From contig CALYLW010000281.1 in assembly GCA_944989445.1 (NCBI GenBank), positions 661,824-725,823 of the forward strand: a stretch of DNA of 64,000 bases, written 5' to 3'. The notes below the pieces were generated by a model that saw nothing but the letters and a program-made list of their open reading frames with translations, did no database searches and was not told where the DNA came from. Made by a program: the position numbers and the translations under genes. Below are positions 6,001-61,100 of the stretch, one piece after another (position 1 is the stretch's first letter; each line of letters begins with the position of its first letter). The stretch is from Ampullaceana balthica (taxonomy: Eukaryota > Mollusca > Gastropoda > Lymnaeidae).

Positions 6001-7096
6001 TATGTTACAAGTTCACAATTGCTTTTTGTTGTTTAATTGTACAACACAATGAACACCAAGAATCAACATTTTTTCCAAGTCACGAACAGTGGGTGCTATA
6101 GTGGGTGCTATAGTGGGTGCTATAGTGGGTGCTATAGTGGGAGCTATAGTGGGTGCTATAGTGGGTGCTATAGTGGGTGCTATAGTGGGAGCTATAGTGG
6201 GTGCTATAGTGGGTGCTATAGTGGGTGCTATAGTGGGTGCTATAGTGGGTGCTATAGTGGGTGCTACAGTGGGTGCTACAGTGGGTGCTACAGTGGGTGC
6301 TACAGTGGGTGCTATAGTGGGTTAACCCCCCTCCCCCACTTACATCCAATCAGTTAATGAGGTCATGACCGTACAAGCCAAGTGAGAGATTCCTCATGAA
6401 TGAAATGAGGCGCTGACATAAAGGATTGTTTTAATGGCCGTCGTGTGCTGCTGTGAAAATGTTTGAGAACTATCTCTAGACTCTAGATGCCAACTAACAA
6501 ACACCTTGGTAGTCTAGTCAGCTGGTGAACACGCCCACAAGGTCCTCTTACATTGGACTAAAAATGGAAGTTAAAATGATTTCCTTTGAATAATATTTCG
6601 CACCTTTTAAAGTAGCTCGCGTTGCCCCCATGATGACACGGCGCACATTCCTAGAACCCCTGGCTTTCGCCCAACTGAGACTGGAGAAAACCCTAACAGG
6701 ACTTGCAGTCACGTCATAAATATCTATAAATAAATATATAAACGGTCATTAGTATATGGTCTGGAAGGTCTAGTCGAAAATGAGATAAATCAGAAAAACT
6801 GACCACGGCCCAGTTCTAGCTCAGAGTCCGGCTATCTGTGGTGCACACCAAACTTGTAAATAGTCTGGTAGGTCTAGTCTGAAAAAAGGTACATGAGAAA
6901 ACTGCCCAGTGTCCAGTTCTAGTCCAGGTGTCTGAGGTGCACAGCGAATGCTCGTCTGGAGCCTCGGGTATTAATTAAATTAGCAGTGGGTCACAAATGT
7001 TGATTTCCCATTGGGATTTTGACAGTTATTCCCCCCCCCCACCCCCGTGAATCAGACACGCGAGCTTAGAATTCCAGGCGCTCTGTCTCTCTCTCA

Positions 7097-7190
<94 letters not shown>

Positions 7191-10100: not shown

Positions 10101-13100
10101 TTAATTCATTTCTTTTTTTGACATCTTTGGTCTGATGTTGTTGTTTTTTCGGGAATGATTACAAATAATTTAGCACAATTTTGAAACAATAATAACTATC
10201 CATATATCAAGTCTTAATATGACGAGGTGATGACTTGGTCGGTTTATAAGTCTTTGTGAGACTAGTTGATGATTTGGTCGGTTTCGTTTTCATTTAATCA
10301 AAGACGGCAATAAGACGTACAACCCTTAAACCATTATTAGCTTTAGGTTATTATTATTAGGATATTTATTATTATCATTATTTTGTTTTTTCTTTAAATT
10401 CACTTTTCAAATCTAACTTTGGGATTAAGGATTAATTGTTTTTATAAGTGATATTGATATGAATTTTTAAACATTTTACATTAAAAAGATAAGTTTCACA
10501 ATCGCATTTTATTTTACATTTTGTTGGGATTTTCCCCCTAAAACATTTCATCGGAGTTTGAGACCAGACAAAGGAAAGAAATTTTCAATATATTCAATAC
10601 TTTTATTACAGTGCATCGCCCGACCAAATATAGAATTTGATTTGTTGTTATTTGCTATCCCTTAAATATGAGAAATATGAAATATTTTTTTAAAAAATAG
10701 TTAGATTAAGTGGTAGTTCAATAAACAAAAGGAAAGAATCAAATAGTTTTTAAATTTCCACTTTTGAGTTGAAATAGTAGTAATTTATTCTATCGCCTAG
10801 CATGTATTTTCAATTCAAATTGTTTTTAAAACTGATACTTTTCAGAATGCATTTTTTTTACAATTGCATAAAGGTTTGGCTTGAATTTTGAATTCCAGTA
10901 ATTTATTCTAAATATATTTGTATTTTTTATTCTCAATGTGAGTTGTCCGAAAAAAAAACATTTAACAAAACCATACAAATTTGAAGATCAATAAAAATGG
11001 TAAAATTCTGCATCGGTTGTGGAATAAATATTTCATCTTATACACTAATAATCAATGCATAAAAAATAGAAAACAAAATACAGTTTTCATTGTAAACCAA
11101 ATGTACGTCTTGTTCTTCGTATTATGAGAATGTCAAAACCTCGGGCAGCCATTTGATCCAATATATGTTTATCTCTGTAGTTCACTTCCGCATCCGGGTC
11201 ATGGACCAGCACAAACCACGAACACTGTCGCCACCTTCCTCGGGGAACACGTTTTGGCAGATCGAGGCTGAGACGAGTATCTTATACGGTAAGCCAATCT
11301 GAGAGACTGGGACAGACGAGTATCTTATACGGTAAGCCAATCTGAGAGACTGGGACAGACGAGTATCTTATACGGTAAGCCAATCTGAGAGACTGGGACA
11401 GACGAGTATCTTATACGGTAAGCCAATCTGAGAGACTGGGACAGACGAGTATCTTATACGGTAAGCCAATCTGAGAGACTGGGACAGACGAGTATCTTAT
11501 ACGGTAAGCCAATCTGAGAGACTGGGACAGACGAGTATCTTATACGGTAAGGCAATCTGAGAGACTGGACCGACGAGTATCTTATACGATAAGGCAATCT
11601 GAGAGACTGGACCGACGAGTATCTTATACGGTAAGGCAATGTGCTTGGCTGGTGTTGTAACACACAACCATAAAAAGTTGACAGCACTTTTGGTGGGTCT
11701 GTTCTTGAATGCACTCAAAAAATAAGATCTATTATTTTAAAGACAACACACACAAAGTAACTGATTTCTTTCGGGGAACTGATTCATATTTAGGCGGTGT
11801 CATTTTAAAAAAAAATGTCTTAAAGCGATTGTACTGATTGTTTTGTTATAAAAAGGGTTTTGAATTTTTAAATTATTTTTATGTTGTTGTTAAATTATGT
11901 TAAATTATCATTATTTCTACTTGTCTTGATGAATTAATTTTAAAAATGATTACCTTGTAATTGATATCAGTGTTCGATTTGATGCAGTAATTATTGTCAG
12001 ATGTTCAACCGAATGTTCAACCGAATGTTCAACCGAATGCCATGTACGGTTAAACAAACAGAACACCAAAATCAATGATAAAACGCTACATAAGAGATTT
12101 CTTTATGAACTTTAAGTCCATTAAACTGATCCTATCTTGTTTGCTTTCAATTCTTTTATGCTAAAAGGACTAAATTAATTTTTAATTTTATTACACTAAC
12201 GGTAATTTATATAGTTTTTTAAAAAATTCTTCTTGACTTCTGCAATGTTTTATATAGAAATGTTTGTGTGTGTTTGTATGTAATCTTTTTTAAATTTTTT
12301 TACTCGTTTCAGGGGAGATCATTCGCTGGGAGCAGCAGGTGAGATTACGTCATATGACGACCCGGAAGTACTTGTGCATAGATGCCAACCATGAGATATC
12401 CCTGACGGTGGACAACGAAGACCCCAAGACCGTGTTCAGATTGCACTCAGTGCTCAGCGTAAGTCTCGTAGCAAAAAACGTTTTCATTATTTAGTTGTGA
12501 GACCTTGTTTGACGATACTCTCAAGAACAGAGGAACTAAGTTCAAAACAGAATCAATGTCCTCTAAATTTGCTTTTAAATAGATGTTAATTTTAATGTTT
12601 CAACTGGGGGAAAGTACCAAGGATAGGGCTTACAGATGAGACTCTACGAGAAACACATGAGACTTTACGGTTAAGACATGAGACTTTACGAGAAAGACAT
12701 GAGACTACGAGAAACACATGAGAATCTACGAGAAAGGCATGAGACTCTACGAGAAAGACATGAGACTCTACGAGAAACACATGAGACTTTACGGTTAAGA
12801 CATGAGACTTTACGAGAAAGACATGAGACTACGAGAAACACATGAGAATCTACGAGAAAGACATGAGACTCTACGAGAAAGACATGAGACTCTACGAGAA
12901 ACATATAAGACTCTATGAGAAACATACAAGAAACGCACGAGACTCTCTAAAAAAGCTTTCCTCGTTAAATAGTTATTATCCAATTATGGCTTTAACTAAA
13001 GCGCGTTGCGTCCTGAAGTTTAGCAATTTGATAGTTGAGTTGTAATCACTGTGTCATTGTATCAACACACACAAAAGTTGCATGGTTCGATTGCATTACC

Positions 13101-16100
13101 TTGTAGACCTATAGATCAAAGCCTTGTTTTAAAAAAAATATTTCAAATAGTTTTAGAGAGATATGTAAAATGTCAACAAAAAACATGAGACAAGCGCAAG
13201 AGCTTATGACGATAAAAGGTAGAAAAGCAGCGCAACAATATGTATGTGAGTTATCGTTGGTAAGATTTCAGACATTTTAATCCCGTCACACAGGAACGAG
13301 ACGAGATTCACTTTGAGAGCTACGCCAGGATTGAACACGTCCTCACTGGATTCTGGCTCCACGCCTTGAAAGGTTTGTGTCTGTCACGGCTCTGTCACTT
13401 GTCAATAAAGGTATTTGTCACTACCCAGTGGTCACTGCTCTGTCACTTGTCAATAAAGGTATTTGTCACTACCCAGTGGTCACTGCTCTGTCACTTGTCA
13501 ATAAGGGTATTTGTCACTACCCAGCGAATTCTCCATGGGTATTTGTCACTAAAATGCGAGTTAACAAAAGATATTTTTCCACTAACTTTTTTTCGACATA
13601 AATTGAGGATTCAAAACAAAAGGTATGTGTCACAACGTTGTTTTTTATTTTATTTTAAAGTTATATGTTTCATCACAACCCTGTTGGTTTTCTAAGGATA
13701 TTTGTCACTTCTCACTAAGCTATCTGTTAGGTTTCGTTACTGTCTGTGTTCTGTTAAAAAAAATTCTTATGAATAAATTTACAAATGAGTTAAGCTCCAA
13801 AAATTTTCGTGGGTGCCTACACAACTTTAACTTTATTCGGAAATACTAGTAAATCAATCGGCTTATTTACGTTCCAGTGGGGGGTCAGACCCTAGGTAGG
13901 TCATTGATGATCCCCGCTTAGCGCCGGTCCTGACCATAGAGACTCGTGTGCTTTGCCGGGGTGGCGCCAAAGTGGCAGAGGGTCGCAGTAGGGAATTCCA
14001 CTACTCCTTGTGAGGTCAATTTAGTGAGAGACATTTTCGACTTCGTGTCCTGGATGCCCTGGTGGCCACTTCAGAAGCGACTGCTCGGGGGGGGGGTCTC
14101 AGCTGTTACGTTCCCTTGGGGGCCAGATAGCTGAGAGGGTCTTCCGGGAAGACTCATGAAGAGCACTAGGCTCGGGGCTGCTGATTTTCTTCCACGTGTA
14201 AGATCATTAACGTTAGTGTAGAATTTCAAGCCATGATGCAATGACGCTATCGTTGGTGTGATATCAAGATTGAATGACGTCATTTTTTCGATTTAGGCAC
14301 ACGTACACAAATATTCTCTAACTCATTTCTTACGAGAATGATAACCGGTGGTTAACTGGCAGAAAGTTAGCAGTAGATGTTTGATCGATTCTTCGATACG
14401 TCTTCAGAGTAAATTGGGTCTTACCATAAGCGCGAGAGAAACGTAAAAAGCCGATGTCAAGAAAGTATGAGAATCTACTGACCTACAACTATAATAATCA
14501 GATTGGTCTTACAGATTGGTTTCACAGATAGGTTTTACAGATAGGTTTTTCAGATAGGTTTTACAGATAGGTTTTACAAAGCTTGTTAAAGTAGACCCGA
14601 AATATCTGAAACTGACATGTTGAAAGTTGCGAGATCAAAATAATTTAGAATTACTGCGATTTTTGTTTCTTTATTTATATAAGTAATACCGGTCTCACCC
14701 CCTGGTCTCACCCCCTAATCTCCTGCTAATAAACTCCAACCAATACATCTTTATAATAGTTAAGAGATGATCTGATTTAGTGACAATTGAAGCTGTAGGT
14801 TCCATGAATCACTCCGGCACCACTGGTGGGTCCGGGGAACTTAACGTCTGGAAAGTTGAAGAAAATGGTCCAATCGTGTGATCCACTTATGATAGCTACT
14901 AATGTAGACCAAGTGCAATATTATCTTATCTTATCTTATCTATACAGACGCTCCTTCTATGCAGAAGATAGTTGCGTCCACAGACCATGACAGATGATCT
15001 GTTGGCAAGTGATGCAGCAATCACAGGCCACGGCTTTGTGGGTTCCACGCATTACCCAGCCGCCTAACTACATGTAGTGTTAGGTACCCATTCGGAGCGG
15101 GGTGACTCAGGGACGCCCTAGGCCCCGGGAACAAACCCTTGCCTTCACACGGATTCGAACCCGTTACCATCGGTACGACAGTCCAGTGCGCTGCCACTCG
15201 ACCACCGCGATCTTACGTTTTTTTTCTTCTCTTTCATGCTCAGATGAAGACTACATCCGGAAACAGTTCAGGGCCGTAGAGGAAAACCAGGAGCATAGCA
15301 TGAGGGGGCTGAGGTGGGACACGGCAAATGTTCGACAGGTAGGACTAGGACAAGGACTTGATATACTACAGATTTACATTTGGTAGACATGAGATAAGGC
15401 TACTGATGGGGTGGTTTTGTTGTTTTTGGTTTTTGTTTGTTTATTTAGTTTTTTGTTGTTGTTGTGTGCGTGTAGGTTTGTGTGTTTGTCTTAATTTGAA
15501 AAGTCATCAATGTTTTTGCTGATAAGTCACCTTAACATATGTTAAGTCTCCTCTGACCTACGTCATCGTAAGACCGGTGAAGACTTGGCGTAAGGACTGC
15601 ACAAGGTCAATTCCGATGACTCGTTGCCAGGCGATGAGAAACAAATCGATGATTGAATGACCACGCAAAAATCTTCTAGAGAATCATTTCTAGCATCTCT
15701 TTTTTATTATGGCGTGTTACCAGTAACGCTGCGAGCAGCCAGGAAAACAAAATTCTTTTTAATGCATGTAAAAAAATATACAACAGTTTTAGTAACATCC
15801 ACAGGTTTGTTTGTAACAGCTCGTTGTCAATCTCTGACCAATTTTGTTGACAAAGGAAAACATCGACAAGGATGTGAGGTGGAGCAATTGATTGTCTATC
15901 TGTCCATTCAGATACAGCGACTTGTAATAGATCATGGCTATAACGTCTTGAAATACCACAGATGGCGGATAGAGACTTGATCTACCACCATACACTGCCA
16001 AAAGTGTCTTGTTATATGGCTACGTGACGGCGGTTGCGTCATGAGATACCGTTAGCTTCGAGCTATGTCGTCTTGTACAACTGTTATATGGCGGCTAATG

Positions 16101-19100
16101 TGGACGCTCAGCCATGGCACAGACACCGGTACTAAATCATGAGCCGGTCAGCTTTTCATCCCGTGACCTCTGGACATCAGAGCATGAATCCCAACCTACA
16201 ACCGACTCGCTGACAGGACAATCAAAACATTACTTCCAATGAGTGGGTCTGGGAAAAATGGCCGATAAAGTCAATAGATTGGGTCATGGGTCTACTACAC
16301 GGCTAGATAGCAGAAAAAAGTCAATAGATTGGGTCATTAGACTTCTACACATTTTACGTTTGGATTTGGGGACTCGTTGAAAATCTGTTTTACCTTCTAA
16401 ATATCATATCATTACACCCCAACTCCTTTCTTTAGAAAAAAATCAATTTTCCCCCCCAAAAAGGTATAACCTTTGTGAAGGGAGGCTGTTTAAGAATTGA
16501 ATTTAGTTTTCAGGATTTCGCTAAGGATATCTAAAAGTTAAGGTTCTCTGTGGCATAAAGTTTCAAGTTTTAAACCTTTCTCTGAAAGTTCTACTAACCA
16601 TGTATTAAACCTTATAATTCTGTCAACAAAGATATGTCAAAATCCGGATAATGCTGTAATTAAGAAAACATAATTCTGTCAGCGAAGATACGCAACAAAC
16701 CGGAGAATGCTGACACTGATACAATGTCAAATGAAGGCGCCAGTCAGATATTGGATACACGCCAAATTGTGTTGAAATTATCCAAATAACTTATCCTTTC
16801 ATATGTCATCACTTGACGACTAAAGCGGCGTCCAGCTCTATGAACATCCTCATTAAATGCCAAGGTTGGCAGCGGTTCCAGGAGTAGTCGGCTAAATGTC
16901 CTAACAGGGGTAAACTATTTCTGCTAACAATGCAGCAAGTCATAAAACCCAAATGAAACCAAACTGCTTAATAACGCTGTAGGCTTAGCGTCTAGGCCGT
17001 CCTATTATCGCTGTGATCCTCATATCCTTTGAGCCAGCGAGCGCCAAGTCCTGGACTGACCAAGTCGCGTTCCGACCAACTGTCAATAAATTATTCAATA
17101 ACAGAAGACTTATTGGCCCGGGTCGTCACACTCTTGAACGTCACTTCCTGGAGCCTCCTGGTCATTAGTGACCGGCGGCTTAAGGTCAAAATATACATTT
17201 CTGTCAAACAAAACTTACACAAAGCTGAGGTCTGTTAGAGTGCACTGAGCGAGCCAGACCAACGGAAATATGCTGCGGAGTCTTTGGTCCGAGCATCGGT
17301 CAATTAAAGTAATCAGGTCGTGGGGGTGGGGGTGTTGCGCTGGGCAGAAGCTTGGTCAGTCTGCACTGTCAGCTTGATGATGTTTCCACCGTCTGGAACG
17401 GGGGGTGGGGATTTTGAAGAGTTCACTTTGAGGGATGACAAAAATACGACTTTAGTGCTAAAAACAAAGTACAAATATCTTGTATTTTTTAATTATTAAA
17501 TAGCTCCTTGTTAACTGTAAGAAATCCTTTGTTTTATTTTTTACCCTAATTTTATTTGATGTGGTAGAGGGAAATTACTTTCAACTAATTTACGTTTACA
17601 GTATTGCATAAGTTTAATGTTCACGTTACTGTTAGCTCTTCGCTGGTGAAGACTTTTGAAAGGCACATCACTGTTTCGTTATTGTTTTTTTGCCTTCATT
17701 ATTTGAATGTAGGATGTCATTGACTGACTGTAGGATGTCATTGACAGATTGTAGGATGTCATTGACTGATTGTAGGATGTCATTGACAGACTGTAGGATG
17801 TCCTTTCCTGACTGTTTGATGTCATTGACTAACTATGTGACGTCATTGACTGACGGTGTGATGTCATTTCCAGGTGGCTGCCAGTGGGGAGAGTATGTAC
17901 GACGATGCGTTCACCATCCAGTACGTGGAGAAGGCGTATGTGGACGACTTTAACTACGTGGCCGGCATGGTGCCCTTCCTGCTGAACCTCATCAAAGATG
18001 TCAGTTTGTGTGGGGCAGCTGTCAGTTTGTGTGGGGTTAGATGTCAGTTTGTGGGGGCAGATGTCAGTTTGTGTGGAGTTAGATGTCAGTTTGTGGGGGC
18101 AGATGTCATTTTGTGGGGGCAGATGTAATTTTGTGGGGGCAGATGTCATTTTGTGGGGGCAGATGTCAGTTTGTGGGGGGCAGATGTCAGTTTTTAAGGG
18201 CAAATTTCATTTTGTGGGAGTAGATGTCAGTTAGTGGGGCAGATATCAGTTTGTGAGGGAAGATGTCAGTGTGTGTGGGGCAGATGTCATTTTTGTGTGG
18301 CCGAAAGTCATTTTGTGTGGGCAGATGTCAGTTTTTGAGCAGATGTCAGTTTGTGTAGACGTATGTCATTTATGAGAACTAAATATAAAATAGATTACTA
18401 ATAGGTATATTTGAAACCCATTGCTTACTCTGTAAATAACTTATCTTATGTGTTACAGACGCTCTTTCTGTACAGAATATTATTGCGACCTGTTTAGTAT
18501 TAATAAACTAAAGGCTATCTTTTGGAATGAATTGCGTGATAAGAATCTAAAATCCCCATAATTGTAGAAGATTAAGGAAATGCGAAGAAGAATTACTTGA
18601 TATGGGTAATGTCTTCTTAGACTTAAAACTAACGCGGGAACTTATAAAATTGATAACAAACATGCAAAGGTTATTCAATAAACACTTTCAATAGGCGCTA
18701 GAAGGAACAAAGGAACAAAGGTGACTGACTGGCACCTAATCCCGCTCTAATTACGAGAGTAGACATACTGACAAGACCATGATCCAAACTAATCCATTGA
18801 AGCTGAAGATCATAAGCGGGATCGTGTCATGTCTTGTGGTATGACATCATCATAACACGCGGTAATGTTATTTGAGTGTCACTCATTACCAGGCTAACGT
18901 GAACTAATTACCCGACCAACCTTGTTTATGATGTCATGATTTCTTCATTTAACGATGTATTGATGTCATGACGTCACGATGTACGATCCCAAGTAGGTCA
19001 ACGTTTTGTCATCATGTCTAATTTCCGGTGTCCTTCTCACGTTCACAGAGAAACGACACAGTCACCCTCAACGCCAAGAAGACGCACCTCACACTGACGG

Positions 19101-22100
19101 TAAGAATAGCTCCACGCGGCGCCTAAACAATATTCACAAATATTAATATTAATTCAGAACTTTGTCACTATATAACAAGTTTTAATCACCATATTGTCAC
19201 TTGTTAAGGTACTACTCAATATATATATTAAAATTAGTATAATTAACGTTGTAAACACAATTAGTCATTTCTCTCAACGGCCTTGAAATTTACAATTTTA
19301 TACGCTGAAACTGTATTTGACCACGTGACTAAATGTTGTTTCCTGCAGGCCATGGAAGAGCTAAGGAGATTCATGTACGTCAATGGGCTCACTAACAAAA
19401 ACAGACAGAAGCTCATGCGCAACCTCAGGGTGAGTGCGTTTCATTGTCACTCGCACTTTTAGTTTTACAGAATGCATGAAATTACAAATGGAAACACAAA
19501 CGATCTTTCGTTCTTTAGCACTGTTTGGGTTTATTGAACAACAAATTAGCTTCAACGCGTTCACATGGTTGGTTTTTTTTAAAAAATAAACACGGCAAGC
19601 TACATATTCAATTAAATACATGTGAGAATTTAAAATTTAAAACTAAAGAATGTGAAAATACATGAATCTCCGCGCTCGCTCCCAGGTGATCGATCTGCTG
19701 GTCAAGATTCTCCAGTGTCAACTCGATGCCCAGCCCGACGAGATCAACCTGACCTCCGTGTTCAAGGAAGCGTACGATACCCTCTACACCTACATGATTG
19801 GCCGGTCAAGGAAGAATGCCCTTTACTTCGCCAAGTACATCGACTTCTTTCAAACCCAGTTTACCCAAAAGGTATTAAATAGACACTTTATCAAACACAA
19901 CCTCATCAAAAGGTATTCAATAGACACTTTCTCAAACACAACTTCATCAAAAGGTATTCAATAGACACTTTCTCAAAACACAACTTCATCAAAAGGTATT
20001 CAATAGACACTTTCTCAAACACAACTTCATCAAAAGGTATTCAATAGACACTTTCTCAAACACAACTTCATCAAAAGGTATTCAATAGACACTTTCTCAA
20101 ACACAACTTCATCAAAAGGTATTCAATGGACACTTTCTCAAACACAACCTCATCAAAAGGCATTCAATAGATACTTTCTCAAACACAACCTCATCAAAAG
20201 GTATTCAATATAAACTTTCAGAAACACAACCTACTCACGCGGTATGAAGTTGTTAAGACATGTCATTGTAGTGGTATAATTTGTTTGATTTGACTAAACA
20301 CGTTTTACTGAACAGGTGTGACCAATATTGTATCTCTTAATAACGCTCTTAACTCGACAGATATGATTTTCAAGACATTAAAACCGTTAAACATAATCCG
20401 TCTGGCTTGTCCACAAAAACAATCTGTTTTCTCCCCCCAGGGTGGTATAGGATTGAATGTTGCCCAGATGATTGTCGAGCTCATCAGGGACAAGAGGAAG
20501 ATTGTTGACCGAATCACGCATGCGCAGATTGATCAGTTTGTGACACTGCTCGAGAAATCACAGGTCATTCATTGTTTTCTTGCAGCTTTTTAACAAAAAT
20601 AAATGTCTCGGAATTTAGTACAAACAAAGATGTATTAAAACACATTAGGTATAAAATGATTTAATATGGTGCAAAAATATTCTTGAACCAATCAACTAGT
20701 GTATTTTTGAGTTGATTCTTTGAAAGCAATAAAACTATATTCTATCGTAATATATTGTAATTGATTTGCAATTGAATTCAAATAGTCAAGGCAAATATCG
20801 ATTTGATTTCCAGTTTTTTTAGAGAATAAAGTGAGAATATATATTTCGAGATTTGAACCCATCTTCAAATCTTTGTTTAGAACTATCGATTCCTGGACCT
20901 GCTTCATGTTCTGTGTGTGTGTGATGACGTGGCCATCCCAAACAACCAGTCCTACATCGTTGAGAGATGGCTGTCTACCGGTCAGGTGAGAAATCTTGCT
21001 GTACCAATGACCAGTACATCGTTGGTCATGTTTTGGTTAGTGGACCACTACCTCTGTGTCACACAGTCAAGTCGAATGCTTGCACGTTAATTATGGATAT
21101 CTGTCAGTAGATTTTATCAGACAACCCTGCGTGATTCGGGACAGTCAAATTTGAAAAAAACAACACTATGCAACTATCAAGTCTGTCTATAAATATGAGA
21201 TCTCAGTTTAAAAAACAATACTTTTATCATGATTTTTTTCTTTTTTTCTGTTAAAGCGTATGATATTAAAGAGCTCTTTGAATATTATGTGTTTAACACA
21301 CACACAAGTTAAAACTAAAAATAACCATTTTAAGAATTGTTTGTTGTTGGTTTTTGTTTCTAATTTAAGGCTCCCACTAAAGTAGCTTGTTGTCTCTCTC
21401 TTTGATTGGCATCAGTAGCTAGAAGTTTAATATTAAAACCTTTGTTAATCAAGATTACCTTGTCCTGTTATTTCCTAATCAGTTTATGTTCTACCTTCTT
21501 TTAAAAGTAAACAATCTGTTCGTCGGTGTGTTGGACTGATTTACCTAAAGATTGACGTCTAGTCCTAGTTGTTAGTTCAGTGAGAATTGACGCTCAAAGC
21601 ACCACAGATTTTTGGTATATCCTCTTAACTGAAGGGCATAGTAATGCGTTGACCACAGTGTTGGCACAAAGCTTTTTGTACGTGACACAATGCTATTCAT
21701 ATCGACAGAAAGGAGTCTACCTGACAGCCAGGGGTCAAGACATCAACAGACAACCCAACATCCTGTACATCTCAACCACAGGAGGGAAGAGCTGGTTGGC
21801 CCTGCACGAGTTTGTGGATGTCAGTAGTCGTGGCGTAACTAATGGTGTATACAGGGTTGGGCGTGGGAACCTGGTCACATGACTGACTTTCTAGTTCTGA
21901 AATGTTGTTTTTTTCCTTAAATTTAAATACAAAAGCTTTGTATTCAAGTTTCAAAATAATAACTTTAATAAGTTCAAGGATTTACTGAAATCATTTTTAC
22001 TTTCATGACTGAATATTTTGTATAATATAATAATTATTGTTCTTTGAAACCTTCTGTCCATACGCCCTCACCCACCCACAGGAGAGCAACGCCTGCTACG

Positions 22101-25100
22101 ACCAGAACAAACACGACTTTCTGCTCCACCAACTGGACCTGTACAAGGCGCTATGCCACGTAAGTAACTCGATCTTTGACCTTGAATTATTTCACTGGAA
22201 ATTTGGGTTTTCACCCGAGCAATTGGGCACAGAAGAGTGGAGAAGTATTTGCTCGTTTTTCCTTTAATCATGATGCTGATGACCCGTGAAAAGAGGTGGG
22301 CATGATACTAAGTTTGGACAAGTGAGTTGAACAACCCTTGTTAAATACCTCAGACAAGTGAGTTGAACAACCTTTGTTAAATACCTGAGACAAGTGAGTT
22401 GAACAACCCTTGTTAAATACCTCAGACAAGTGAGTTGAACAACCCTTGTTAAATACCTCAGACAAGTGAGTTGAACAACCTTTGTTAAATACCTCAGACA
22501 AGTGAGTTGAACAACCCTTGTTAAATACCTCAGTTCATTTTCATAACTTAAAACTTTTCAGAGGGAAAAAATTTACTCTCGGGCAAAAAGACCCCAAAAG
22601 GGTTGAGAGTATCTTGAGTAAAACATACACAGTGAAGCCATCATGCAATGAACAAAAACAAATTATTTGCGTATATATTTCCAGAATGGGAAATACATTT
22701 TTGGTGGTTTTGTCAAATTAGTTGGACTTCATCGATGATTTTACATTTTTTTATCATTCACAAACATTATAGAAATCTTTAAACAAGAGAATCTGGTAAT
22801 TTCCAAAAATTCTAGACAATTTGCATAGATAAACAGGGCAGACACAACGGCCGTTACCTACATCACCCCTTTGTGTTACTGTCAAAGATAATTTTAATGA
22901 TGGTTTCGACAGGGTCGGAATGACTTCGCCATTAACATCATAACAAAGGAGTTAAGGTACCTGACCTGGGAGGAGACCTTCCTGTCCCTGAGGTCAGACA
23001 TTCTGCCAGACGCCATCAGGGCCAAGTACTGTGATCTCACCACAAGTAAGTGCCCTCCCTTGAACGAACAAACACCCGGACTGACTTCCCTTGAACATAC
23101 AAACACCTGGTCTAAACGCCCGGATCGAAATACGCAACTAGAGTAAGAGCCCTTGAAGGAACAAACACCTGCTCTTTCTGTCCCTATTAAAAACACACTT
23201 TCTTACTGCCCTTGAAAGAACAAACACACAAGTTAGAACTAAACGTCATTCCAGCTACAAGTGCCCCACCACAAAATTTCAAGAGGAGAAATTTAACTAT
23301 ATCAGTGCCAGTTGGGATCTCTCATGCCATCTTTCTATTTCTTTTATTTCTCTTTTGTTTGGCTTTTCTCATTCTAAGACACGGATATAAACAATAACAA
23401 GTATTTAAAAAAAAATTAAAATTATTCGTTACAATAAATTTAAACAAATTCAGTTACATCTGGTAAAATTTGTCCGTCATTAAAATTAAAATGTATACAC
23501 ATTTTTTTCTTTCGATTTCACTTAACGGTACAATTTACAGGTTACCGTGACTATCTTATCTTATCAGTTACAAACCTCCCTTCTATACAGAATATTATTG
23601 CGTCCTATGAAGACTGGTCTATAATTTCTTTCCGTTAAGATAACGTCAATCCTGCCAATATGATCACTGAACATTTGAATATATCTTATCTTATCTGTTA
23701 CAGACACTCCTTCTATACAGAAGATTATTGGGTCCTACGCTTCTCTATGGTTTCTGCTTAGTCCTGCATTTTTATTAGAGATTTAAATGTTGATAAAGTG
23801 TTGGTTTTCCTAGTTTCTTCAGGCAACCCATTCCACGCCCGAATGCCGGACGGGAAGAACGAAAATTTGTATGTGTTTGTTCTTGCATACGGAATAGGAA
23901 AGGTGTTTTTATCCTTATGTCTATCTGAGGGTTGTATTAAGTTATCTTTTTGTTGTATTTCTAAATTAGAATTAATTGCTTTATGTATGATTACTACTTT
24001 GCTCTTGGTTCTTCTATCCTCTAGTGTTTCAAGGTTGAATGATTTAACTAATGGTGTTATTCTTGTCAGTTTTGAATATTCTCCAGTAATGTATAAAACA
24101 ATTTAGCCAGTACACTGTCTACTGTCATTGTTAGCAGACGTCTAGACACCCATCTTTGATTGCCCCATTCAGAAATTCTAGCATGAATTTTTTTAATATT
24201 TTTTTTTAGAACCGGCCAGCCGAGTTTATTTATAATTCCTTTCTATTAACAGAATTACACTGATATCTTGAGCAACGGTTCCAGAAAATTAGATGACTTG
24301 TACCCGATCACTGTTTTGTTTGATTTTTTTTTCAAGTGTTTGCTAACAACCGTCAAATCGACCGTAAAATGAAAAACTAATTAATTTCAGTTCATAAAAT
24401 TCCGAACACACAAAATGTTTTGTATACAATAAAAGAAAAAACATCTCTCGTAACGCTGCGATGTGCTTATGTTAAGATTCACTTTAAATAAGAATTCACT
24501 AAGATGTCACTGAACTAAGTCTTTTCTGTGGTTAACTCTAGCTTTATTTTTTTTAATTTTATTTTTTTTAATTTTAAAAATAACTTTTTGAAAATTGCCC
24601 GAGCATAGATCTAAATATTTCTTAGAGGGTTATAGTTCAAAATTATGTATATTTTCCCTCTCCACAATACCTTTCGTAATATTTTTTTTAAGAAAGCTAA
24701 AAACTAGAATTAATTATAGATTTGATCTATTGCTAAGGTTGACGAATTTCAGTCCAGTTTATTCTGTAGGCCGATTTTGTTTTCTGATTGCTGCACTTTT
24801 GATTCCCCCACCCCACACCCCCCACCCCCACCCATTTAAGAACAACATGAGTAGTAATAATAAGAACGCTGCTGGAGTTTTGGTAAACAAGTTTAAGAAC
24901 CGTCATAGTTCTGCCCCCCCCCCACAACACACCTTTCAACCTGATAGATATTACTATAGATATTACTATAGATATTACTATAGATATTACTATAGATATT
25001 ACTATAGATATTACTATAGATATTACTATAGATATTACTATAGATAGTACTATAGATATTACTATAGCTATTACTATAGATAGTACTATAGATATTACTA

Positions 25101-49100: not shown

Positions 49101-52100
49101 TATAAAAACTATTGTTTTTGAAGTCATATTTCAGCATAGTTACTTTTAATTCTACCTATTTCAACTTTTTAAATCAAAGAAGAGTGACGTTTTAAGAGGA
49201 AAACTTTTGTTAAATCTTTTAAGCATCTTTACTATTTACAGTCTATTGCTTCATGAGTTTTTTTTAAATATCCAGGTATTGCGTCTTTTGTACCACTTGG
49301 TCAAGTTTGGTTACTACATGGATCATGATGATGTAGGTCAGCTGTTGCCTCCCATGTTGAGTTTGTTAGATGGCAGGCATGACTTCCCTTTTCCAAAAGA
49401 CAGAGATAAAGGTTAAATATTTTTAAAATTATAAATAGCAGTTATATTTTAGGTTGAAAACACTATAGTTGAGTGAAGTTTTTTTCTGAATTAGAAAACT
49501 TAATGACAAAGAAATCCATAGCTAAATGCTTATGCCAATTAAGCTTAAAAATTATTAATTGTTTTATATTTTAATAGCAAGGGATACTTGGTATTTTATT
49601 ATGTCATTAACGTTTTTTTAAAGTCTAACTTGAAATGTTTTTGCTTATGTATTTGTGGATTTTTGTTTCATACTTTTCTTACTTTTTAAATAACTGAATG
49701 ATTCTTTAAATAATTTGTGGACCATTAGAACATCTGCAATGAGACTAGGGTTGCTAGGTGGCTGTCTCAAAACTACCGGACACTAGTGTCGAATTTTGTC
49801 GATGGCACAATATTTCAATGTAAAATGTTCGGTATTGCTTCCATTTTTCCACTGGACAAATAACGATAATACCGGACAGTCCAGTACAAAACCGGACATC
49901 TGGCAACCCTAAATGAGACAATGTTTGATCTCTCCTGCAAGGTTATTCTAAAGATGCGATGAAGCAAGTCTTGCAGTTCCAACATTCAGACCGCTACGAA
50001 AAAGCCCCTGAAACTATTGCCATTGTCAACGCTAAATATCAGTTAGTCAATGTTTCTCCTCTCCTTTTCTGAATAGCTTAAAGGATACAGTTAAAATTTG
50101 ATACATTAAAAGCTTCATAAATTCTCTATGTGCAAGGCTTAATGTTTAGATGCTTAATTTAGGTGCATAAAAATTTCATTTCATGTGTTCCATTTTGTTT
50201 TAAAAACTGTAAATCAGTCAAATTGGTAAAAATGAAATGAAGCTAAGGAAAAGCTACTTAATTATTTACTGTCACATATATTTCTTCAAACTTAAAATGC
50301 CGGACACAAGCCAAATTATCTAATACTTTACTGCATTTGTTTTTGCATTCTTTGATGACATTAAGTTCATTAAGAGCAAACTAAAATTGTAGGCTGCACA
50401 AAGGAATCAATACAAAATTTAAAATAAGGCTTTAATTTTGTGGTTAATCCCTTTGGTATGGTAAATAATTTAGATGGGAACAAATTCTTAAAGACCATGC
50501 TGTATGCTTCCTAAACAAAGCTCTAACCACAATTCATGTAAACACAAATATTTGATCATCTCTTACAGAGCATTAGAAGTTCTTGATCTGCTTCTCACAT
50601 ACCAAAGGAATTCCAGACTTCAGGTATTCAGATCATTTAGATTTATTTTAATGTATTTCACATTATGATAGTACAATGGCTGTTTATTTTGATTATTTGT
50701 GGTGTGAGGGGGGGGAGAGTGGGGTTGCGTAGGGAAATAAAATTATTTAGCTGTGACTGCAGAAATAACTCTGGACTCTGGACGCAGTAAAAGGTATTGA
50801 ACATTTTAAATAAATTATGGTACGGAAAGAAATGTAACTTAAACTAAGACATCCCACCAACCAAGGGAGCTGATTCTTATCATACAGTTAATTTTATGTC
50901 TCATTGTGTGATCCTCTGACCACAGAGCTTCGTGGGAAAGTTATTTTATGTCTCATTGTGAGATTCTCTGACCACAGAGCTTCGTGGGAAAGTTATTGTA
51001 TGCCTCATTGTGAGATCCTCTGACCACAGAGCTTCGTGGGAAAGTTATTTTATGTCTCATTGTGAGATCCTCTGACCACAGAGCTTCGTGGGAAAGTTCA
51101 AGGTAGCTGAGATGTCTGTAGCCTTAAGGAAACCGGCCAGCGTCTTAAGTCCACTGCTGTATGACACTTTTAATCCACATGACCAGTCTAAGTGAGTATC
51201 ATTGATTCTCAGCTAGCTTTTAAAGTGTGTTTTCAATTATGCAAAGTGATTTGAAACATTTACCATAAAACTTAGGAAATTTTCTGTGAACTATCATATG
51301 ATATCATTAACTATTATTAAATTTGCTGATAAGAAAACAAAGCTACCTTTTTCCCCAGCAAGAAAAAAAAATTAAAAACATAAAAATGCTGTTCTTATGT
51401 TTAGTTAAAAATATCTTAGCAGTAATTAGTAAATTAGAATATTCTAAAGTTCAATTTTTTAAGAATTTTTTTCTCATTAAACAACAGAAAATCATTGAGG
51501 AAACAGCGGCTGGTAAACAAAGAAATGCGAGATATGTTTAATGCATCTGCCATTTTTGAAATTGAGCTTCTTACTAAAATACTCACGGTAAAATTATGTT
51601 TAATTATTTGATTATTGATTTTATTTTATAAGTGTTTAATTTTGTAAAAACATTTAACTTTTAACAAAAATATTTTATTTTGTAATTTTATAGTTAATAT
51701 GTGCAAATAATTGAACACATTTGATGCTACTGGCTGTCTCAAGCTCCCTGTCTTGCTATATTTTTTAATTGTTCATAGATCCACACTTTTAAAAGCAAAC
51801 TTTAACACTTTTTTGAAGTTTAGAAATTGATCAATAATATTTTATATTGTAGAAGTTTGTGCTTTGTCTATAAAATTCATCCTCTGTGCATTGAAGCTAC
51901 CAATTTACTTTTTACTTTTAATGGTAATCATCAGTAGCAATTTTTAAAAATTACCATCATCACATTTAAAGGTCTCATCTGATTCTGTGAAATGTTTATT
52001 TCAAGGATTTATCCAAGTACAAATACAACAAAGTTATAACCAAGTCTCTTAACATCCTGAACAAAGTTTACTCTTCAAAGACCAACATGTTCAATTTATC

Positions 52101-55100: not shown

Positions 55101-58100
55101 CACAGGAATAGTTAGTTATGACTGTTACTATCACAGGAATAGTTAGTTATGACTGTTACTATCACAGGAATAGTTAGCTATGACTGTTACTATCACAGGA
55201 ATAGTTAGTTATGACTGTTACTATCACAGGAATAGTTAGTTATGACTGTTACTATCACATGAATAGTTAGCTATGACTGTTACTATCACAGGAATAGTTA
55301 GTTATGACTGTTACTATCACAGGAATAGTTAGTTATGACTGTTTTATCACAGGAATAGTTAGTTATGACTGTTACTATCACATGAATAGTTAGTTATGAC
55401 TGTTACTATCACAGGAATAGTTAGTTATGACTGTTACTATCACAGGAATAGTTAGCTATGACTGTTACTATCACAGGAATAGTTAGCTATGACTGTTACT
55501 ATCACAGGAATAGATAGCTATGACTGTTACTATCACAGGAATAGTTAGCTATGACTGTTACTATCACAGGAATAGATAGCTATGACTGTTACTATCACGG
55601 GAACCCTTGTCCTAAAGTTAACAGTAATATAAAAGTATTCAATAACTTAACATTTTGTTCATGTGAGAAAATACATGTAGCTGAGTTAATTAAATCCATT
55701 CATGATGAATCAATTCTAAAATAATATTTTTTTCATTGTTTGGATAAAAAAGTAAGGGACCTAGCATCTTTGATGAATCCCTTAATATAATTCCTCCATA
55801 CCCCAAATCATTGATTGTATCTTGAACTGTCTTGAAGGAATAGGATTAGTGTGATCAATCTGTATTGTTCTGGGCTAATCTCAGGATTTAAAAGAATAGA
55901 TGTTCTGTATGGGTTCCCTTACGTATATGAATACATTTAAAATAGATCTAAGCTGAACCAGTACTTTTAAATTATATTTTAGCTAAATCTGTACATGTTA
56001 ATTATATTTAAGCTAAATCTGTACATGTTAATTATATTTTAGCTAAATCTGTACATGTTAATTATATTTTAGCTAAATCTGTACATGTTAATTATATTTA
56101 AGCTCAATCTGTACATGTTAATTATATTTTAGCTAAATCTGTACATGTTAATTATATTTTAGCTAAATCTGTACATGTTAATTATATTTAAGCTCAATCT
56201 GTACATGTTAATTATATTTTAGCTAAATCTGTACATGTTAATTATATTTTAGCTCAAAAAACTTTTTTTTCAAAACATTTAAGCTAAAAATATTATTTTT
56301 CAAAACATTTAATCTAAACCTGCTCATTTTTCTGTTGGAACTTTTAAGCTAAACTGTTCTTTATTTTCAATTTATGTAAACTAAGTATGTATCATTTGCT
56401 TTAGAGTAATAGTTATTTAAACTTAAACAACAGCTTTTATTCAATTATAGCTAAAATAAATTGATCAGTCTTCCCTAACCAGCTCAACTTGCTGTTTGTT
56501 TATTTTGTTTCCTTTGTTCTACAGGAACAATATGGAGGCATGACTTCAGTGTTCAGAAAGACTTTGTATCTCCTCAAGTTGCTGGCCAGGGAGAATGAAG
56601 CTGTTCAGATGCACATTTTTGAGAGGCTGGATATTTTACTAGATGTCCGGGTAGTAGAGAGTGAACTAGCCATAGCTCTTAGAGAGGTAATCTAGATATA
56701 GCTCTTAGAGAGGTAATCTAGATATACAACTATCAGAGAGTTAATCTAGATATATAACTATCAGAGAGTTAATCTAGATATATAACTATCAGAGAGTTAA
56801 TCTAGATATATAACTATCAGAGAGTTAATCTAGATAGATTACTCTTGGAGAGTGAATAAGCCACAGCTTTAAGAGAGGTAATCTAGATATATAACTATTA
56901 GATTGGTTGTTGGTTTGTTTGTTTGTTTTTTTAATTTTTTTTGTTTTGCTTGACTTATACCTTTGATGGTTAAAAAAACCTATATATGCATTAAATAAAA
57001 CCTACATTTATCCATTGGTCATTAAAATAAAATGATTTATTCCTAAAGGATATTTTAAAAAAAGAAACTTATCCCTCAGAAAGGAAAACTTCATTAATAA
57101 AATTGAAAATTTTTTAAATTCTGAAAAAAGGGAAATTAATATTGACCTATTGTCAGTAAACTTATTATAATAATGACCAACAGACGTGTGAATTTACTAA
57201 GGTTTTTTTGTGTTCCAAGTTTCTCACATTTTATAAGTATATCTTTGATTTGATCCCATAATTAAAAAAAATAGGTTTATAATCTCTGAGTCCAGCATTA
57301 ATATATGATCACAGTAATTTGCTGGACACTGTCCATTCTACCTACCAACCCACCTCTTGGTTGAGTAATATTTTATTCATGACTCTGGTCAGCAATCTGA
57401 TGATTGACCTACTTCTTTGTGTGTTTGACCTGCCATCACAAACAGCTACTTTGTATCTCCAGGTTTTCTACGGAAACCAAAACACTTGTCTTAAGATCAA
57501 CCCAAGGCAAATTCAGAAGATTGTCAACAGAGCTGCTGACCTTCAAGAGAAAGGACCAGAGTTCCTTGACCTACTTTCCATGATCGTCAAAGTAGCCGGC
57601 ACAGATTTAACCCTGAAGCGGAACCAGGCCTATGTGATGAAGTACATCATGCAGAACTATAAAAAAGTTGCTTTTGTCCTTGACCTTCCCAGGGAGGAAA
57701 GGTGGGTCCTTCCTGATATGTGATTACATTCACAAAATACAGGAATAAACCACATTATTAATATGTATCACTGGATAGGGTTTATATCTCAGATTCATGT
57801 CATGTTAATGATGAACAAATCCAATTGCTCATTACCTAGTTTATATGAATATATTGAAAGTGCTGTGTAAAGTTTAAATGTTGCCACAATAGATTATATA
57901 TAACTGTACTTAATGCTGTGTAACTGGGTCAACTAATATTTCTCTCCCTTTAGAGAAGCCATCCTGACACAAGCTGACAAAATGTCACGTCTGCGTTACT
58001 ACATTTGTTTACTGGACCTCCTGGCAGCATGTGCTGAGGTATGTAGGGTTTTACCCAGAGGAATGTAGTGTTTTACCCAGAGGAATGTAGTGTTTTACCC

Positions 58101-61100
58101 AGAGGTATGTAGTGTTTTACCCAGTGGAATGTAGTGTTTTACCCAGTGGAATGTAGGGTTTTACCCAGAGGTATGTTGTGTTTTACCCAGTGGAATGTAG
58201 TGTTTTACCCAGAGGAATGTAGTGTTTTACCCAGAGGAATGTAGCATCTATCCTGAGGATGGTTTTGTAAACATTTTACATTATTGCTCACTTACAACTG
58301 TGCTTCAGAAAAGGTGATTCATTTAAATTCATTTAAACATCTAGATATGAACAGGGGTTTAATTGGGTGGTATCTGTGTGTGGAAGGCTCTCAATAATTC
58401 ATATCCTAGTTAAGCCAAGTGACCCCCTATGTGTCCCAGGGTATCTTATCTCATCTATACAGACGCTCCTTCTATGAAGAAGATAATTGCGTCCACAGAC
58501 CATGACGGATGATCTGTTGGCAAGTGATGCAGCGTTCACAGGCCATGGCTTTGTGGGTTCCACGCATTACCCAGCCGCCTAACTAGTGTTAGGTACCCAG
58601 GGTGTGGGGAAGGCTCTAAATGATTCATTTCCTAGTTAAGCCAAGTGACCCCGTATGTTTCCCAGGGTGAGAACCTCTTCATTGAGTCCCTGTGTCAGAC
58701 GATCCTTCCGATGGAAGACCTGCTGGCGATCCTCAACAACCCGGCTATAGACAACGTCCTGAAGAAACCGTTCCTCAGATGTCTTCATCACGTGTACATG
58801 AAGAGTACAGGAAACGTCGTGGACATGCAGACCAGCGAGATACCCCATGACACGTGAGTGAATGTTGTTCCAACATCTTATATTTAATGGTGTATTGCAG
58901 CTTTTAACAAATATGACTTATGCTTCTACATAGCGCTTATTCTCCAACACATGTGTGTTACAAAGACGAAATCATTTTATAATCATGGTCATTTTTAAGA
59001 AACCAGTCAATCAATTGATGAACTATAAAAATGTCTAAGGTTTATCTACAGTTACATTTTTGTTTTTTTATGAACTTACCTCTGTCAATGCTTGGTGGTT
59101 CAGAAATTAATGGCTTTCCCACTAATTAATCAAGCGCATTGGAATCTGTTTAGATTTGTTTATATTTTAGTCATTGGAACTGTTTGATATCTAGAGACTG
59201 TTACGAGAGATCTGCGTTACTAACTTACTAGTGATGTATTCACGGACACTAATAATATGTATATGCCCTGTTTATGGTCAATGTTTGCTCATATAAAGTC
59301 AAGATTCTGTCTGTATGTGAACTCAGTGCAATCTCATTATAAATATCTACTTATCAAGAAGATTTTGGTCATGAGTGTTATTATATCCATGAATGTTATT
59401 ATATCAATCAAGAATCTTATTATATAAATCGTGAATGCTACGTGCTCCGTGTCATACTAAACTTGTAATTCCTTCTCCACAAGTTTCCCTTTTCTCATTC
59501 ACACAATTATTCTGCATCAATAACATATGTTTACAAATATATCTATATAATATAATAATAATAACAACACATTTTCTAATTCTTTATTTAGAGTTCTTGT
59601 TTTATAACAACCTAACATATGTAACATGATGAAGTTCAGGCTAATAGTCCCCCAGACGGCTGGTATGATATGGGTCTGAATTAGTCAAAGAAAACATCAC
59701 AGTCTTTCATAGAACTATTTGTTTCAGTGGCCAGTTTTATGAGACGTGATCCCTGTGACCTCATGGGCTGAGTTGTGATTGATCCAACTGGCAATCAGCT
59801 TATAAACTTTGGTTTTGAAAAGTTCACGTTTATGTGGTTATAATTTTGTATTGACAAGTTCAATAGATGTGGGTTATAGTTATAGTTTGGTTTTGACAAA
59901 GTTCACTCGATGTGGTTATAGTTATAGTTTGGTATTGACAAGTTCACTCGATGTGGTTATAGTTATAGTTTGGTTTTGACAAGTTCACTCGATGTGGTTA
60001 TAGTTATAGTTTGGTTTTGACAAGTTCACTCGATGTGGTTATAGTTATAGTTTGGTATTGACAAGTTCACTCGATGTGGTTATAGTTATAGTTTGGTATT
60101 GACAAGTTCAATAGAAGTGGTTATAGTTTTATTTGACAAGTTCAATAGATGTGGTTATAGTTATAGTTTGGTTTTGACAAGTTCACTCATTGTGGTTATA
60201 GATTTGTTGAATGATTTTTGCAATACACTCATCACATTCCTAAAACACTGTAAGCCTAATGGAATTTATTAAACATACTGGAATCAAAATGCTTAATGTG
60301 CATAAATGAAGTTGCTGTCTTCATCAATAAGGTTTATCGTGGATGTTTCACTGTTATTTAAAATGAGAGATGTCTGTTCTTAACACAAATAGTTATTTCA
60401 AGCCCCATGAGAAAATGAATACCCCCCAGCCCTTTTGAAATTATTTGAGCTTGAATTTTAAGATGGACATCATGTTTCATCATGTTACTGTAACTTGTTA
60501 TTTACCATCATACTGCACCAAAAAGATAATCAACCAATTGTCTGTCCTTACACAATTTACCTCTTCTTTCTTCTCTCTCTCCTGTCTTCCTCCACCGTGG
60601 AACTACTTGTAAAGAACACGGACCAACACCTCGTGAGTCTGAATGATTTATTCTAATACTTGCAGTCAAAAACTATTTGAAACTCGTGTTGGAATGGAAT
60701 TTCTATAAATAGCTCTAGCATGGTATGGGTGGTCAGAGTCACTGCACTGTGCTGCTGTTCATGTTCCAAGGGCTGCCACTCACATCACTCTCATTGCAAT
60801 GTTTATTTCAACAACAGTTTTGACTGTATTTTTCAAGAGTATGCTCATTTTCTTTTTCTGATTACTTTTTTTTTCAGAATTTTTTTTAAAAAATCAAACT
60901 GTAAGCATTTGCTGAGAATATTAACCCCTGAAGAAATGCTGTGCAGTCTGTCGGCTGTTTTAGAATATACACAACATATAAGTAAAACTTGATAAATCAA
61001 AACGATAGAGAATAACTATTTAAAAAAGATTTGGAAGCTTTCAGAAAACAATAATAAAAAGAAGAGAAGATCATTTCATATCAGATATAAAAACATACTA

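What the first reader, a model, noticed from the sequence alone, without database searches (positions are those of the whole stretch)
11272..58441. Tandem repeats seeded exactly at splice junctions of one gene
At exons 4, 11, 18 (donor side) and 22 (acceptor side), and more weakly at 6, 8, 28 and 30, the intronic minisatellite begins at the exon boundary and every unit contains the splice site. Repeat arrays are common in introns, but a recurrent start at the splice junction in a single gene is not expected by chance and suggests a shared mechanism: slippage or break repair at exon-intron borders, selection for many U1/U2 binding sites, or both. I know of no named phenomenon that covers this.
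Basis: seen in the sequence. Interest (0 to 1): 0.88.

Follow-up and report, generated by a model that had tools for sequence, protein, structure and literature searches.

The report
Splice donors grown into minisatellites

Summary
Arrays overlap 6 of 30 donors in the window (0.66 expected; 0 of 20,000 shuffles). Other genes add 5 of 65 donors (P 0.007), or 4 of 64 (P 0.03) without one donor that I reached by following its array: 319 copies over 10.5 kb, absent from the paralogue.
The effect is donor-specific: 16 array starts in the last 50 exon nt against about 3 per 50 nt of intron; acceptors show 4 against 4.5. It lies almost wholly in arrays of six or more copies (12 against 0.8), and real donors exceed equally good pseudo-donors (7/44 against 5/164 sense).
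Donor bases are not better conserved than other unit bases, and using the next copy gives a stop or frameshift in 15 of 16 arrays, so selection for many U1 sites is not supported. I favour a transcription- or splicing-coupled expansion, tolerated because the first donor is used; that is inferred. A single case is known (IFI6).

The parts
11181..11288 (+). exon 4 of the IP3 receptor gene (...NTFWQIEAETSILYG)
   Evidence: tblastn with P0036/P0037/P0038, junction refinement
11271..11640 (+). donor-spanning array, 43 bp x 8.7; first 18 nt are exon 4; donor ACG|GTAAGC (or GTAAGG) in each of the first 7 units
   Evidence: TRF, units
13383..13524 (+). array 48 bp x 3.0 beginning 10 nt after the exon 6 donor; does not contain the donor
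17704..17868 (+). array 21 bp x 7.9 ending 5 nt before the exon 8 acceptor
17996..18356 (+). donor-spanning array at exon 8 (exon 17874-17999), about 20-bp units, 4 nt of exon
19866..20230 (+). donor-spanning array at exon 11 (exon 19686-19871), 41 bp x 8.9, 6 nt of exon
23046..46815 (+). intron 16, 23.8 kb, with many arrays away from junctions
47145..47261 (+). exon 18 (...ASDIGHNMLIEQ)
47241..47795 (+). donor-spanning array at exon 18, 43 bp x 13.0, 21 nt of exon (HNMLIEQ), donor CAG|GTCTGA; GT in 12 of 12 parsed later copies
50886..51098 (+). acceptor-spanning array at exon 22 (exon starts 51082), 52 bp x 4.1, 17 nt of exon
56681..56902 (+). donor-spanning array at exon 28 (exon 56525-56686), 28 bp x 8.1; degenerate, GT kept in 2 of 4 parsed copies
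58036..58244 (+). donor-spanning array at exon 30 (exon 57954-58038), 22 bp x 9.5, 3 nt of exon; GT kept in 2 of 8 later copies

Best explanation
These are minisatellites whose repeated unit contains a real 5' splice site together with 3-49 nt of the exon before it, and they most likely grow to high copy number through a process coupled to transcription or splicing (for example break or gap repair at R-loops on exon ends) while splicing would keep using the exon-proximal donor. Step 1 (shown by paralogues at one site): an in-place tandem duplication takes in the donor; the native intron continues directly after the array, with no foreign insert. Step 2 (inferred from copy-number classes): duplications that contain a working donor expand or persist far more than other intronic duplications. 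Step 3 (seen in one transcript of the same or a close species; otherwise inferred): the first donor is the one used, so the protein is unchanged. The coupling to transcription or splicing is inferred from enrichment at donors only, and at real donors more than at look-alikes.
For: Array starts per 50-nt bin from the last 50 exon nt onward: 16,3,6,2,4,1,3 over 115 donors, P 2.5e-7; acceptors 4 against mean 4.5 over 118. With 14 more donors, none overlapped: 16 of 129, P 4.9e-6; outside the IP3 receptor gene 5 of 65, P 0.007; leaving out the C719 donor whose exon I fetched after seeing its array, 4 of 64, P 0.03, and 15 of 128, P 2e-5. Copies >=6: 12 against 1,1,0,2,0,1; copies <3: 1 against 3,4,2,3,1,2. 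Real IP3 receptor donors (score >=6) in arrays of >=6 copies 7/44, pseudo-donors of equal score in the same introns 5/164 sense, 3/178 antisense. Sense G-skew of donor arrays 0.28 against -0.03 for other high-copy arrays, p 0.026. Myosin paralogues: 319 copies at one donor against none at its twin, and the reverse at another donor (L024 3314 has 8 copies, its C719 counterpart in L050 has none). Genome-wide: 4,173 hits of a paired perfect donor against 1,246 for the pattern read backwards; 6 of the 9 clusters inspected begin at a coding-like exon end, 4 of them with domain or homologue support.
Against: No direct mutational, R-loop or expression data. The count of starts within 25 nt of the donor in the unseen introns alone was not significant (4 against 2.07, p 0.14; for arrays scoring 100 or more 4 against 1.43, p 0.047), because two arrays begin 29 nt inside the exon. 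Five of eight myosin loci have no donor array, and outside the IP3 receptor gene the evidence is modest (P 0.007, or 0.03 by the stricter count). High-copy arrays away from junctions show no G-skew, so R-loops do not explain arrays in general. The pseudo-donor contrast is not significant on the sense strand at score >=9 (5/14 against 2/15, p 0.21). Six of 16 arrays take in only 3-6 exon nt, which could be partly chance extension. Array ends within 25 nt of acceptors are mildly in excess (7 against 3.43, p 0.049). Selection on something other than the donor bases is not excluded. The genome-wide pattern count is of copies, not arrays, and is not corrected for how common the single 9-mer is.
Confidence: 0.5

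Rival explanations
1. Selection keeps arrays because many donor copies add U1 binding, for robust splicing or against premature polyadenylation.
For: GT is kept in 161 of 179 later copies outside the 319-copy array (478 of 497 with it); some arrays show less change in the donor than elsewhere (for example the 25-copy array at 193542 of the joined locus, 0.000 against 0.062).
Against: Over 15 arrays the donor 9-mer is less variable than the intronic rest in only 7, p 0.39. Use of the next copy gives a stop (8) or frameshift (7) in 15 of 16 arrays. Donors with arrays are not weak (median score 9.0 against 7.2, p 0.07). IP3 receptor introns with donor arrays are not longer once arrays are removed (560 against 530 nt, p 0.77).
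Confidence: 0.17
2. Passive tolerance: this genome makes tandem duplications everywhere, and those over a donor are simply harmless.
For: The 264 kb around the gene holds 208 arrays covering 67.7 kb. Low-copy duplications show no donor bias. The non-receptor sample alone is small: 5 of 65 donors, or 4 of 64.
Against: Tolerance predicts at most the intronic density, yet the last 50 exon nt hold 16 array starts against 1 to 6 in the six intronic bins, and 12 against 0.8 for high-copy arrays.
Confidence: 0.13
3. A DNA-level motif effect: G-rich GTRAGT-like sequence is prone to expand wherever it lies.
For: Donor arrays are G-skewed; array units away from junctions hold donor-like motifs somewhat more than expected, 4 against 0.8 sense and 3 against 1.3 antisense of 46 arrays; 3 of 9 donor-motif clusters on C1 do not abut an exon.
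Against: Pseudo-donors of equal score in the same introns lie in high-copy arrays far less often: 5/164 sense and 3/178 antisense against 7/44 at score >=6; weaker at score >=9.
Confidence: 0.12
4. Arrays born inside introns grow outward until the exon stops them, so edges pile up at splice sites.
For: Four arrays end 1-5 nt before an acceptor, and six start only 3-6 nt inside an exon.
Against: In the other ten arrays the first 18-49 nt are exon; where I printed units that exon end recurs from unit to unit, so the first duplication already spanned the donor. Pile-up should be equal at acceptors and is not.
Confidence: 0.08

Closest known systems
IFI6 (6-16) minisatellite giving multiple splice donors (Turri, Cuin, Porter 1995, doi 10.1093/nar/23.11.1854)
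   Same: By its title, a minisatellite that supplies multiple splice donor sites in a transcript. I saw only the title, in the reference lists of PMC2915984 and PMC4526556; the paper is not held.
   Different: One human gene there; here 16 of 129 sampled donors in several genes, with a measured donor bias, high copy number and a paralogue comparison.
Internal tandem repeats of human segmental-duplication genes (PMC2812944, passages read)
   Same: Minisatellites of about 30-bp units vary between paralogues and, at an exon-intron boundary, may change gene structure.
   Different: There half of the repeats lie in coding sequence and some may form new introns; here introns pre-exist and the coding sequence is unchanged. 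No donor-side bias is described in the passages I read.
Intron gain by tandem genomic duplication (PMC4974935, start of abstract in a listing only); introns from tandem arrays (Zhuo et al. 2007, recalled, not seen)
   Same: Tandem duplication of a segment holding a splice signal.
   Different: Those create introns from a duplication; here an existing intron's donor is multiplied, up to 319 times.
Intronic VNTR linked to splicing, TERT VNTR6-1 (PMC11830802, start of abstract in a listing only)
   Same: High-copy 38-bp array in an intron.
   Different: Described in the listing as lying within intron 6; no donor inside the unit is stated there.

Membership tests
Splice-donor minisatellite (IFI6/6-16 type) | array overlaps the 3' end of an exon | tested here: met
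   16 arrays start 3-49 nt inside the exon
Splice-donor minisatellite (IFI6/6-16 type) | later units carry a GT donor | tested here: met
   GT kept in 478 of 497 later copies of 15 parsed arrays (161 of 179 without the 319-copy one), but only 2 of 8 at exon 30, 2 of 4 at exon 28, 0 of 1 at L024 4454
Splice-donor minisatellite (IFI6/6-16 type) | alternative donors are used in transcripts | not testable with these tools
   Only one transcript-derived protein was seen, over one arrayed donor; it uses the first donor
Intron gain by tandem duplication | both splice sites of a new intron come from the duplicated segment | tested here: not met
   In the 11 IP3 receptor introns with a donor array the acceptor lies 196-7063 nt after the array end
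Intron gain by tandem duplication | intron absent from relatives | tested here: not met
   Myosin paralogue L024 has the same intron without an array; one pair only
Inserted mobile element with splice sites (introner type, recalled) | same sequence at many sites, inserted into flanking sequence | tested here: not met
   In the arrays printed, the unit is made of the local exon end and intron start and differs from array to array; after the C719 array the native intron continues. Dispersed copies in the genome were looked for only with one array stretch, which matched itself alone

The most novel reading that the evidence does not exclude
Working 5' splice sites are a genome-wide mutational hotspot in this lineage: a splicing-coupled process turns roughly one donor in eight into a minisatellite, growing introns outward from the exon end and rewriting thousands of genes without touching the protein.
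Probability: 0.4. Interest if true: 0.87.

Novelty: new variant of a known kind. Interest (0 to 1): 0.72.

Why it matters
Minisatellites are usually treated as arising blindly and being tolerated. An excess of high-copy arrays at donors only, and at real donors only, would tie repeat expansion to transcription and splicing and give a direct source of intron growth. It also poses a clean splicing question: how does the spliceosome pick the first of up to 319 near-identical donors, when nearly every other choice breaks the frame? The paralogue pair with 319 copies against none makes both questions testable.

Tried and rejected
Ab initio gene finding alone missed exons and made false exons inside arrays; for the IP3 receptor it was replaced by homology. 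Pfam and PDB searches with single exons gave little. The array at 38397 (TACAAG|GTAAGA) looked like a donor array, but no conserved exon lies there and it was not counted. I considered rolling-circle insertion of donor RNA fragments; the seamless native flank after the C719 array speaks against it. Protection against premature polyadenylation was rejected on intron length. One search stopped with an error after its first part; the part that failed was redone. Papers: nine searches showed no report of a genome-wide donor bias of tandem arrays in what they listed; most subscription journals are not held. An earthworm metallothionein paper with intronic minisatellites (PMC12783039, passages) does not mention donors inside units in those passages. 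Splice-site weights, codon seeds and consensus frequencies in my scripts are recalled or self-trained, from no call.

Rows dropped before counts: the intron ending at 168014 of the joined locus and the unbridged stretch between exon 31 and about 167483 (no homologue across). Of 64 predicted exons at myosin loci, 13 donors were left out as not myosin-like or uncertain (L024 3542, 7192; L025 1042, 2657; L026 7620; L027 931, 5622; L028 381, 2411, 5176; L030 64, 3411; C719 11669); two of them (L024 3542, L030 64) lie inside arrays, though outside the 50-nt bin. The kept myosin donors rest on the ab initio model plus likeness to myosin, not on a full homology model. The C719 donor 355 was reached by fetching L032 after its array had been seen in L031; counts without it are. 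Of the last 16 loci, L042 and L056 were dropped (no peptide found), L044 and L054 were kept with no GT near the peptide end, and their TRF rows were not merged, which can only raise the background.
Full report
WHAT THE GENE IS. The window encodes exons of an inositol 1,4,5-trisphosphate receptor. A draft translation found relatives, the best in gastropods: Plakobranchus ocellatus (87% identity), Batillaria attramentaria (85%), Bradybaena similaris (93%). The source is therefore likely a gastropod; no name was available. The window lies at 661824-725823 of contig C281 of a 1.097-Gb assembly. I fetched 100 kb on each side; matched exons span about 131 kb. Sixty-four introns are bridged by homologues: 30 in the window and 34 outside it.

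CHECK OF THE OBSERVATION. Arrays overlap the donors of exons 4, 8, 11, 18, 28 and 30 and the acceptor of exon 22; at exon 6 the array begins 10 nt after the donor. In exons 4, 11 and 18 nearly every unit repeats the exon end and the donor (GT in 6 of 7, 7 of 8 and 12 of 12 later copies); in exon 30 six of eight later copies have lost the GT, in exon 28 two of the four that could be parsed.

CHANCE. I moved each array at random within its own intron, allowing 25 nt of exon on either side. In the window 6 donor overlaps were seen against 0.66 expected (0 of 20,000 shuffles; 1 of 20,000 if only arrays scoring 100 or more are used) and 1 acceptor overlap against 0.66 (p 0.49). The other donor count, starts within 25 nt, was 4 against 2.07 there (p 0.14), not significant. 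Over all 64 introns: 11 against 1.68 at donors (0 of 20,000), 3 against 1.68 at acceptors (p 0.23), and 7 array ends within 25 nt of an acceptor against 3.43 (p 0.049).

OTHER GENES. A myosin-head search listed 80 matches in the genome. I fetched eight myosin loci, chosen without knowledge of their repeats, and then a further stretch of one of them, C719, because its array had been seen to carry an exon end. Five of 51 scored donors are overlapped: two in L024, a myosin VII-like gene (PDB match to myosin VIIa), two in L029, and one in C719. Five loci (L025, L026, L027, L028, L030) have none at a scored donor. Sixteen more exon ends gave none; two of these could not be placed. Outside the IP3 receptor gene 5 of 65 donors are overlapped, against 1.17 array starts per intronic 50-nt bin (P 0.007); in all, 16 of 129 (P 4.9e-6). 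Without the C719 donor reached by following its array: 4 of 64 (P 0.03) and 15 of 128 (P 2e-5).

SHAPE OF THE EFFECT. Over 115 donors, array starts per 50-nt bin from the last 50 exon nt onward are 16, 3, 6, 2, 4, 1, 3; over 118 acceptors the matching counts are 4, 7, 4, 4, 3, 5, 4. Exon overhangs run from 3 to 49 nt. The excess sits in arrays of six or more copies (12 against 1,1,0,2,0,1), is small for three to six copies (3 against 2,1,0,0,1,1), and absent for fewer than three (1 against 3,4,2,3,1,2). Donor arrays have a median of 8.9 copies; arrays starting within 300 nt after a donor have 3.0 and the rest 4.1 (p 0.008 against both together). So the first duplication is not what is special; growth or persistence is.

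REAL DONORS, NOT THE MOTIF. In the IP3 receptor introns, real donors scoring 6 or more lie in arrays of six or more copies in 7 of 44 cases; pseudo-donors of equal score do so in 5 of 164 (sense) and 3 of 178 (antisense). The contrast holds at thresholds 5, 6 and 7.3 and weakens at 9 (sense 5/14 against 2/15, p 0.21; antisense p 0.018).

SPEED AND ORIGIN. C719 and L024 are paralogues: aligned blocks are 78-95% identical, about 94% in the three that hold most exon sequence. At one donor C719 carries 319 copies of a 33-bp unit (10.5 kb), starting 19 nt inside the exon; L024 has none there. After the array the C719 sequence continues as the L024 intron does, so the array is an in-place tandem duplication, most simply one that expanded after the paralogues split. 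At another donor the reverse holds: L024 has an 8-copy array and C719 has none.

GENOME-WIDE. The pattern CAGGTGAGT, 11-41 bases, CAGGTGAGT occurs 4,173 times against 1,246 for the pattern read backwards. The places printed (a cut list, all on contig C1) form nine clusters by my grouping. I read the upstream flank of all nine: six begin at the end of an open, coding-like exon, namely a homeodomain exon, two exons of galactosyltransferase type 13 kb apart (Pfam), an ABCA-type ATPase exon (PDB match), and two open frames without a family match (L035, L039). Three clusters (L033, L036, L041) do not. The counts are of copies and are not corrected for single-motif frequency; the searches for that did not complete.

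DOES SELECTION KEEP MANY DONORS? Among later copies the donor 9-mer is less variable than the intronic part of the unit in 7 of 15 arrays (p 0.39); the sixteenth could not be parsed. Taking the next donor would insert a stop in 8 and shift the frame in 7 of 16 arrays; one stays open. Arrayed donors are, if anything, strong (median score 9.0 against 7.2, p 0.07), and arrayed introns are not long once arrays are subtracted. This does not favour selection for U1 sites. Sense G-skew is higher in donor arrays than in other high-copy arrays (p 0.026) and at arrayed than at unarrayed donors (0.26 against 0.12, p 0.033), which would suit R-loops, but other high-copy arrays show no skew.

WHICH DONOR IS USED. 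A 663-aa protein from a 2,154-base contig (P0087) aligns over 492 residues at 97.6% identity without a gap and joins the exon that ends at the first copy of a 25-copy array directly to the next exon. The contig is far shorter than the 10.7 kb its exons span here, so it is most simply a spliced transcript of the same or a close species; whether that animal has the array is unknown.

VERDICT. The phenomenon is real, donor-specific and present in several genes. The mechanism, a transcription- or splicing-coupled expansion tolerated by first-donor use, is inferred. A single instance of a donor minisatellite is in print (IFI6, title seen); I found no report of a genome-wide donor bias in the searches named under Tried and rejected.

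Noticed in passing
38397-38999: 204-bp higher-order array in intron 16 beginning TACAAG|GTAAGA, a good donor with no conserved exon before it; perhaps a lost or alternative exon.
   Followed up: partly
30728-32334: Two abutting arrays in intron 16 sharing GTGAGTATAACATGGGA, together about 58 copies of a donor-like motif far from any exon of the gene.
   Followed up: no
56655-56712: The exon 28 end (...CTAGCCATAGCTCTTAGAGAG) resembles the intron's first bases (...CTAGATATAGCTCTTAGAGAG), as if the intron start were a copy of the exon end.
   Followed up: partly
43750-44199 (+) and 23761-24102 (-): Two related open frames (one reads ...YASSVWDPSTKENIDKLEQIQKRAARFITGEYSKLTRV...) that I recall as a retrotransposon reverse-transcriptase tail; no Pfam match for the first.
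   Followed up: partly
G000:C430:316077-319978: Five nearby matches to nearly the same short part of the myosin head, possibly mutually exclusive exons or a duplicated exon.
   Followed up: no
L029 reverse complement 6482-7830: A second, 37-copy array whose unit resembles the donor array at 5578-5744 in the same intron, so donor-derived units may spread further downstream.
   Followed up: no
G000:C281, joined locus 11537-13658 (+ strand, upstream of the window): Predicted exons of an EF-hand protein lie upstream of the receptor gene.
   Followed up: partly
17868 in the window, and joined-locus positions 80508, 99933, 168607: Four arrays stop 1-5 nt before an acceptor, which may show that arrays are stopped at acceptors but run over donors.
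   Followed up: partly
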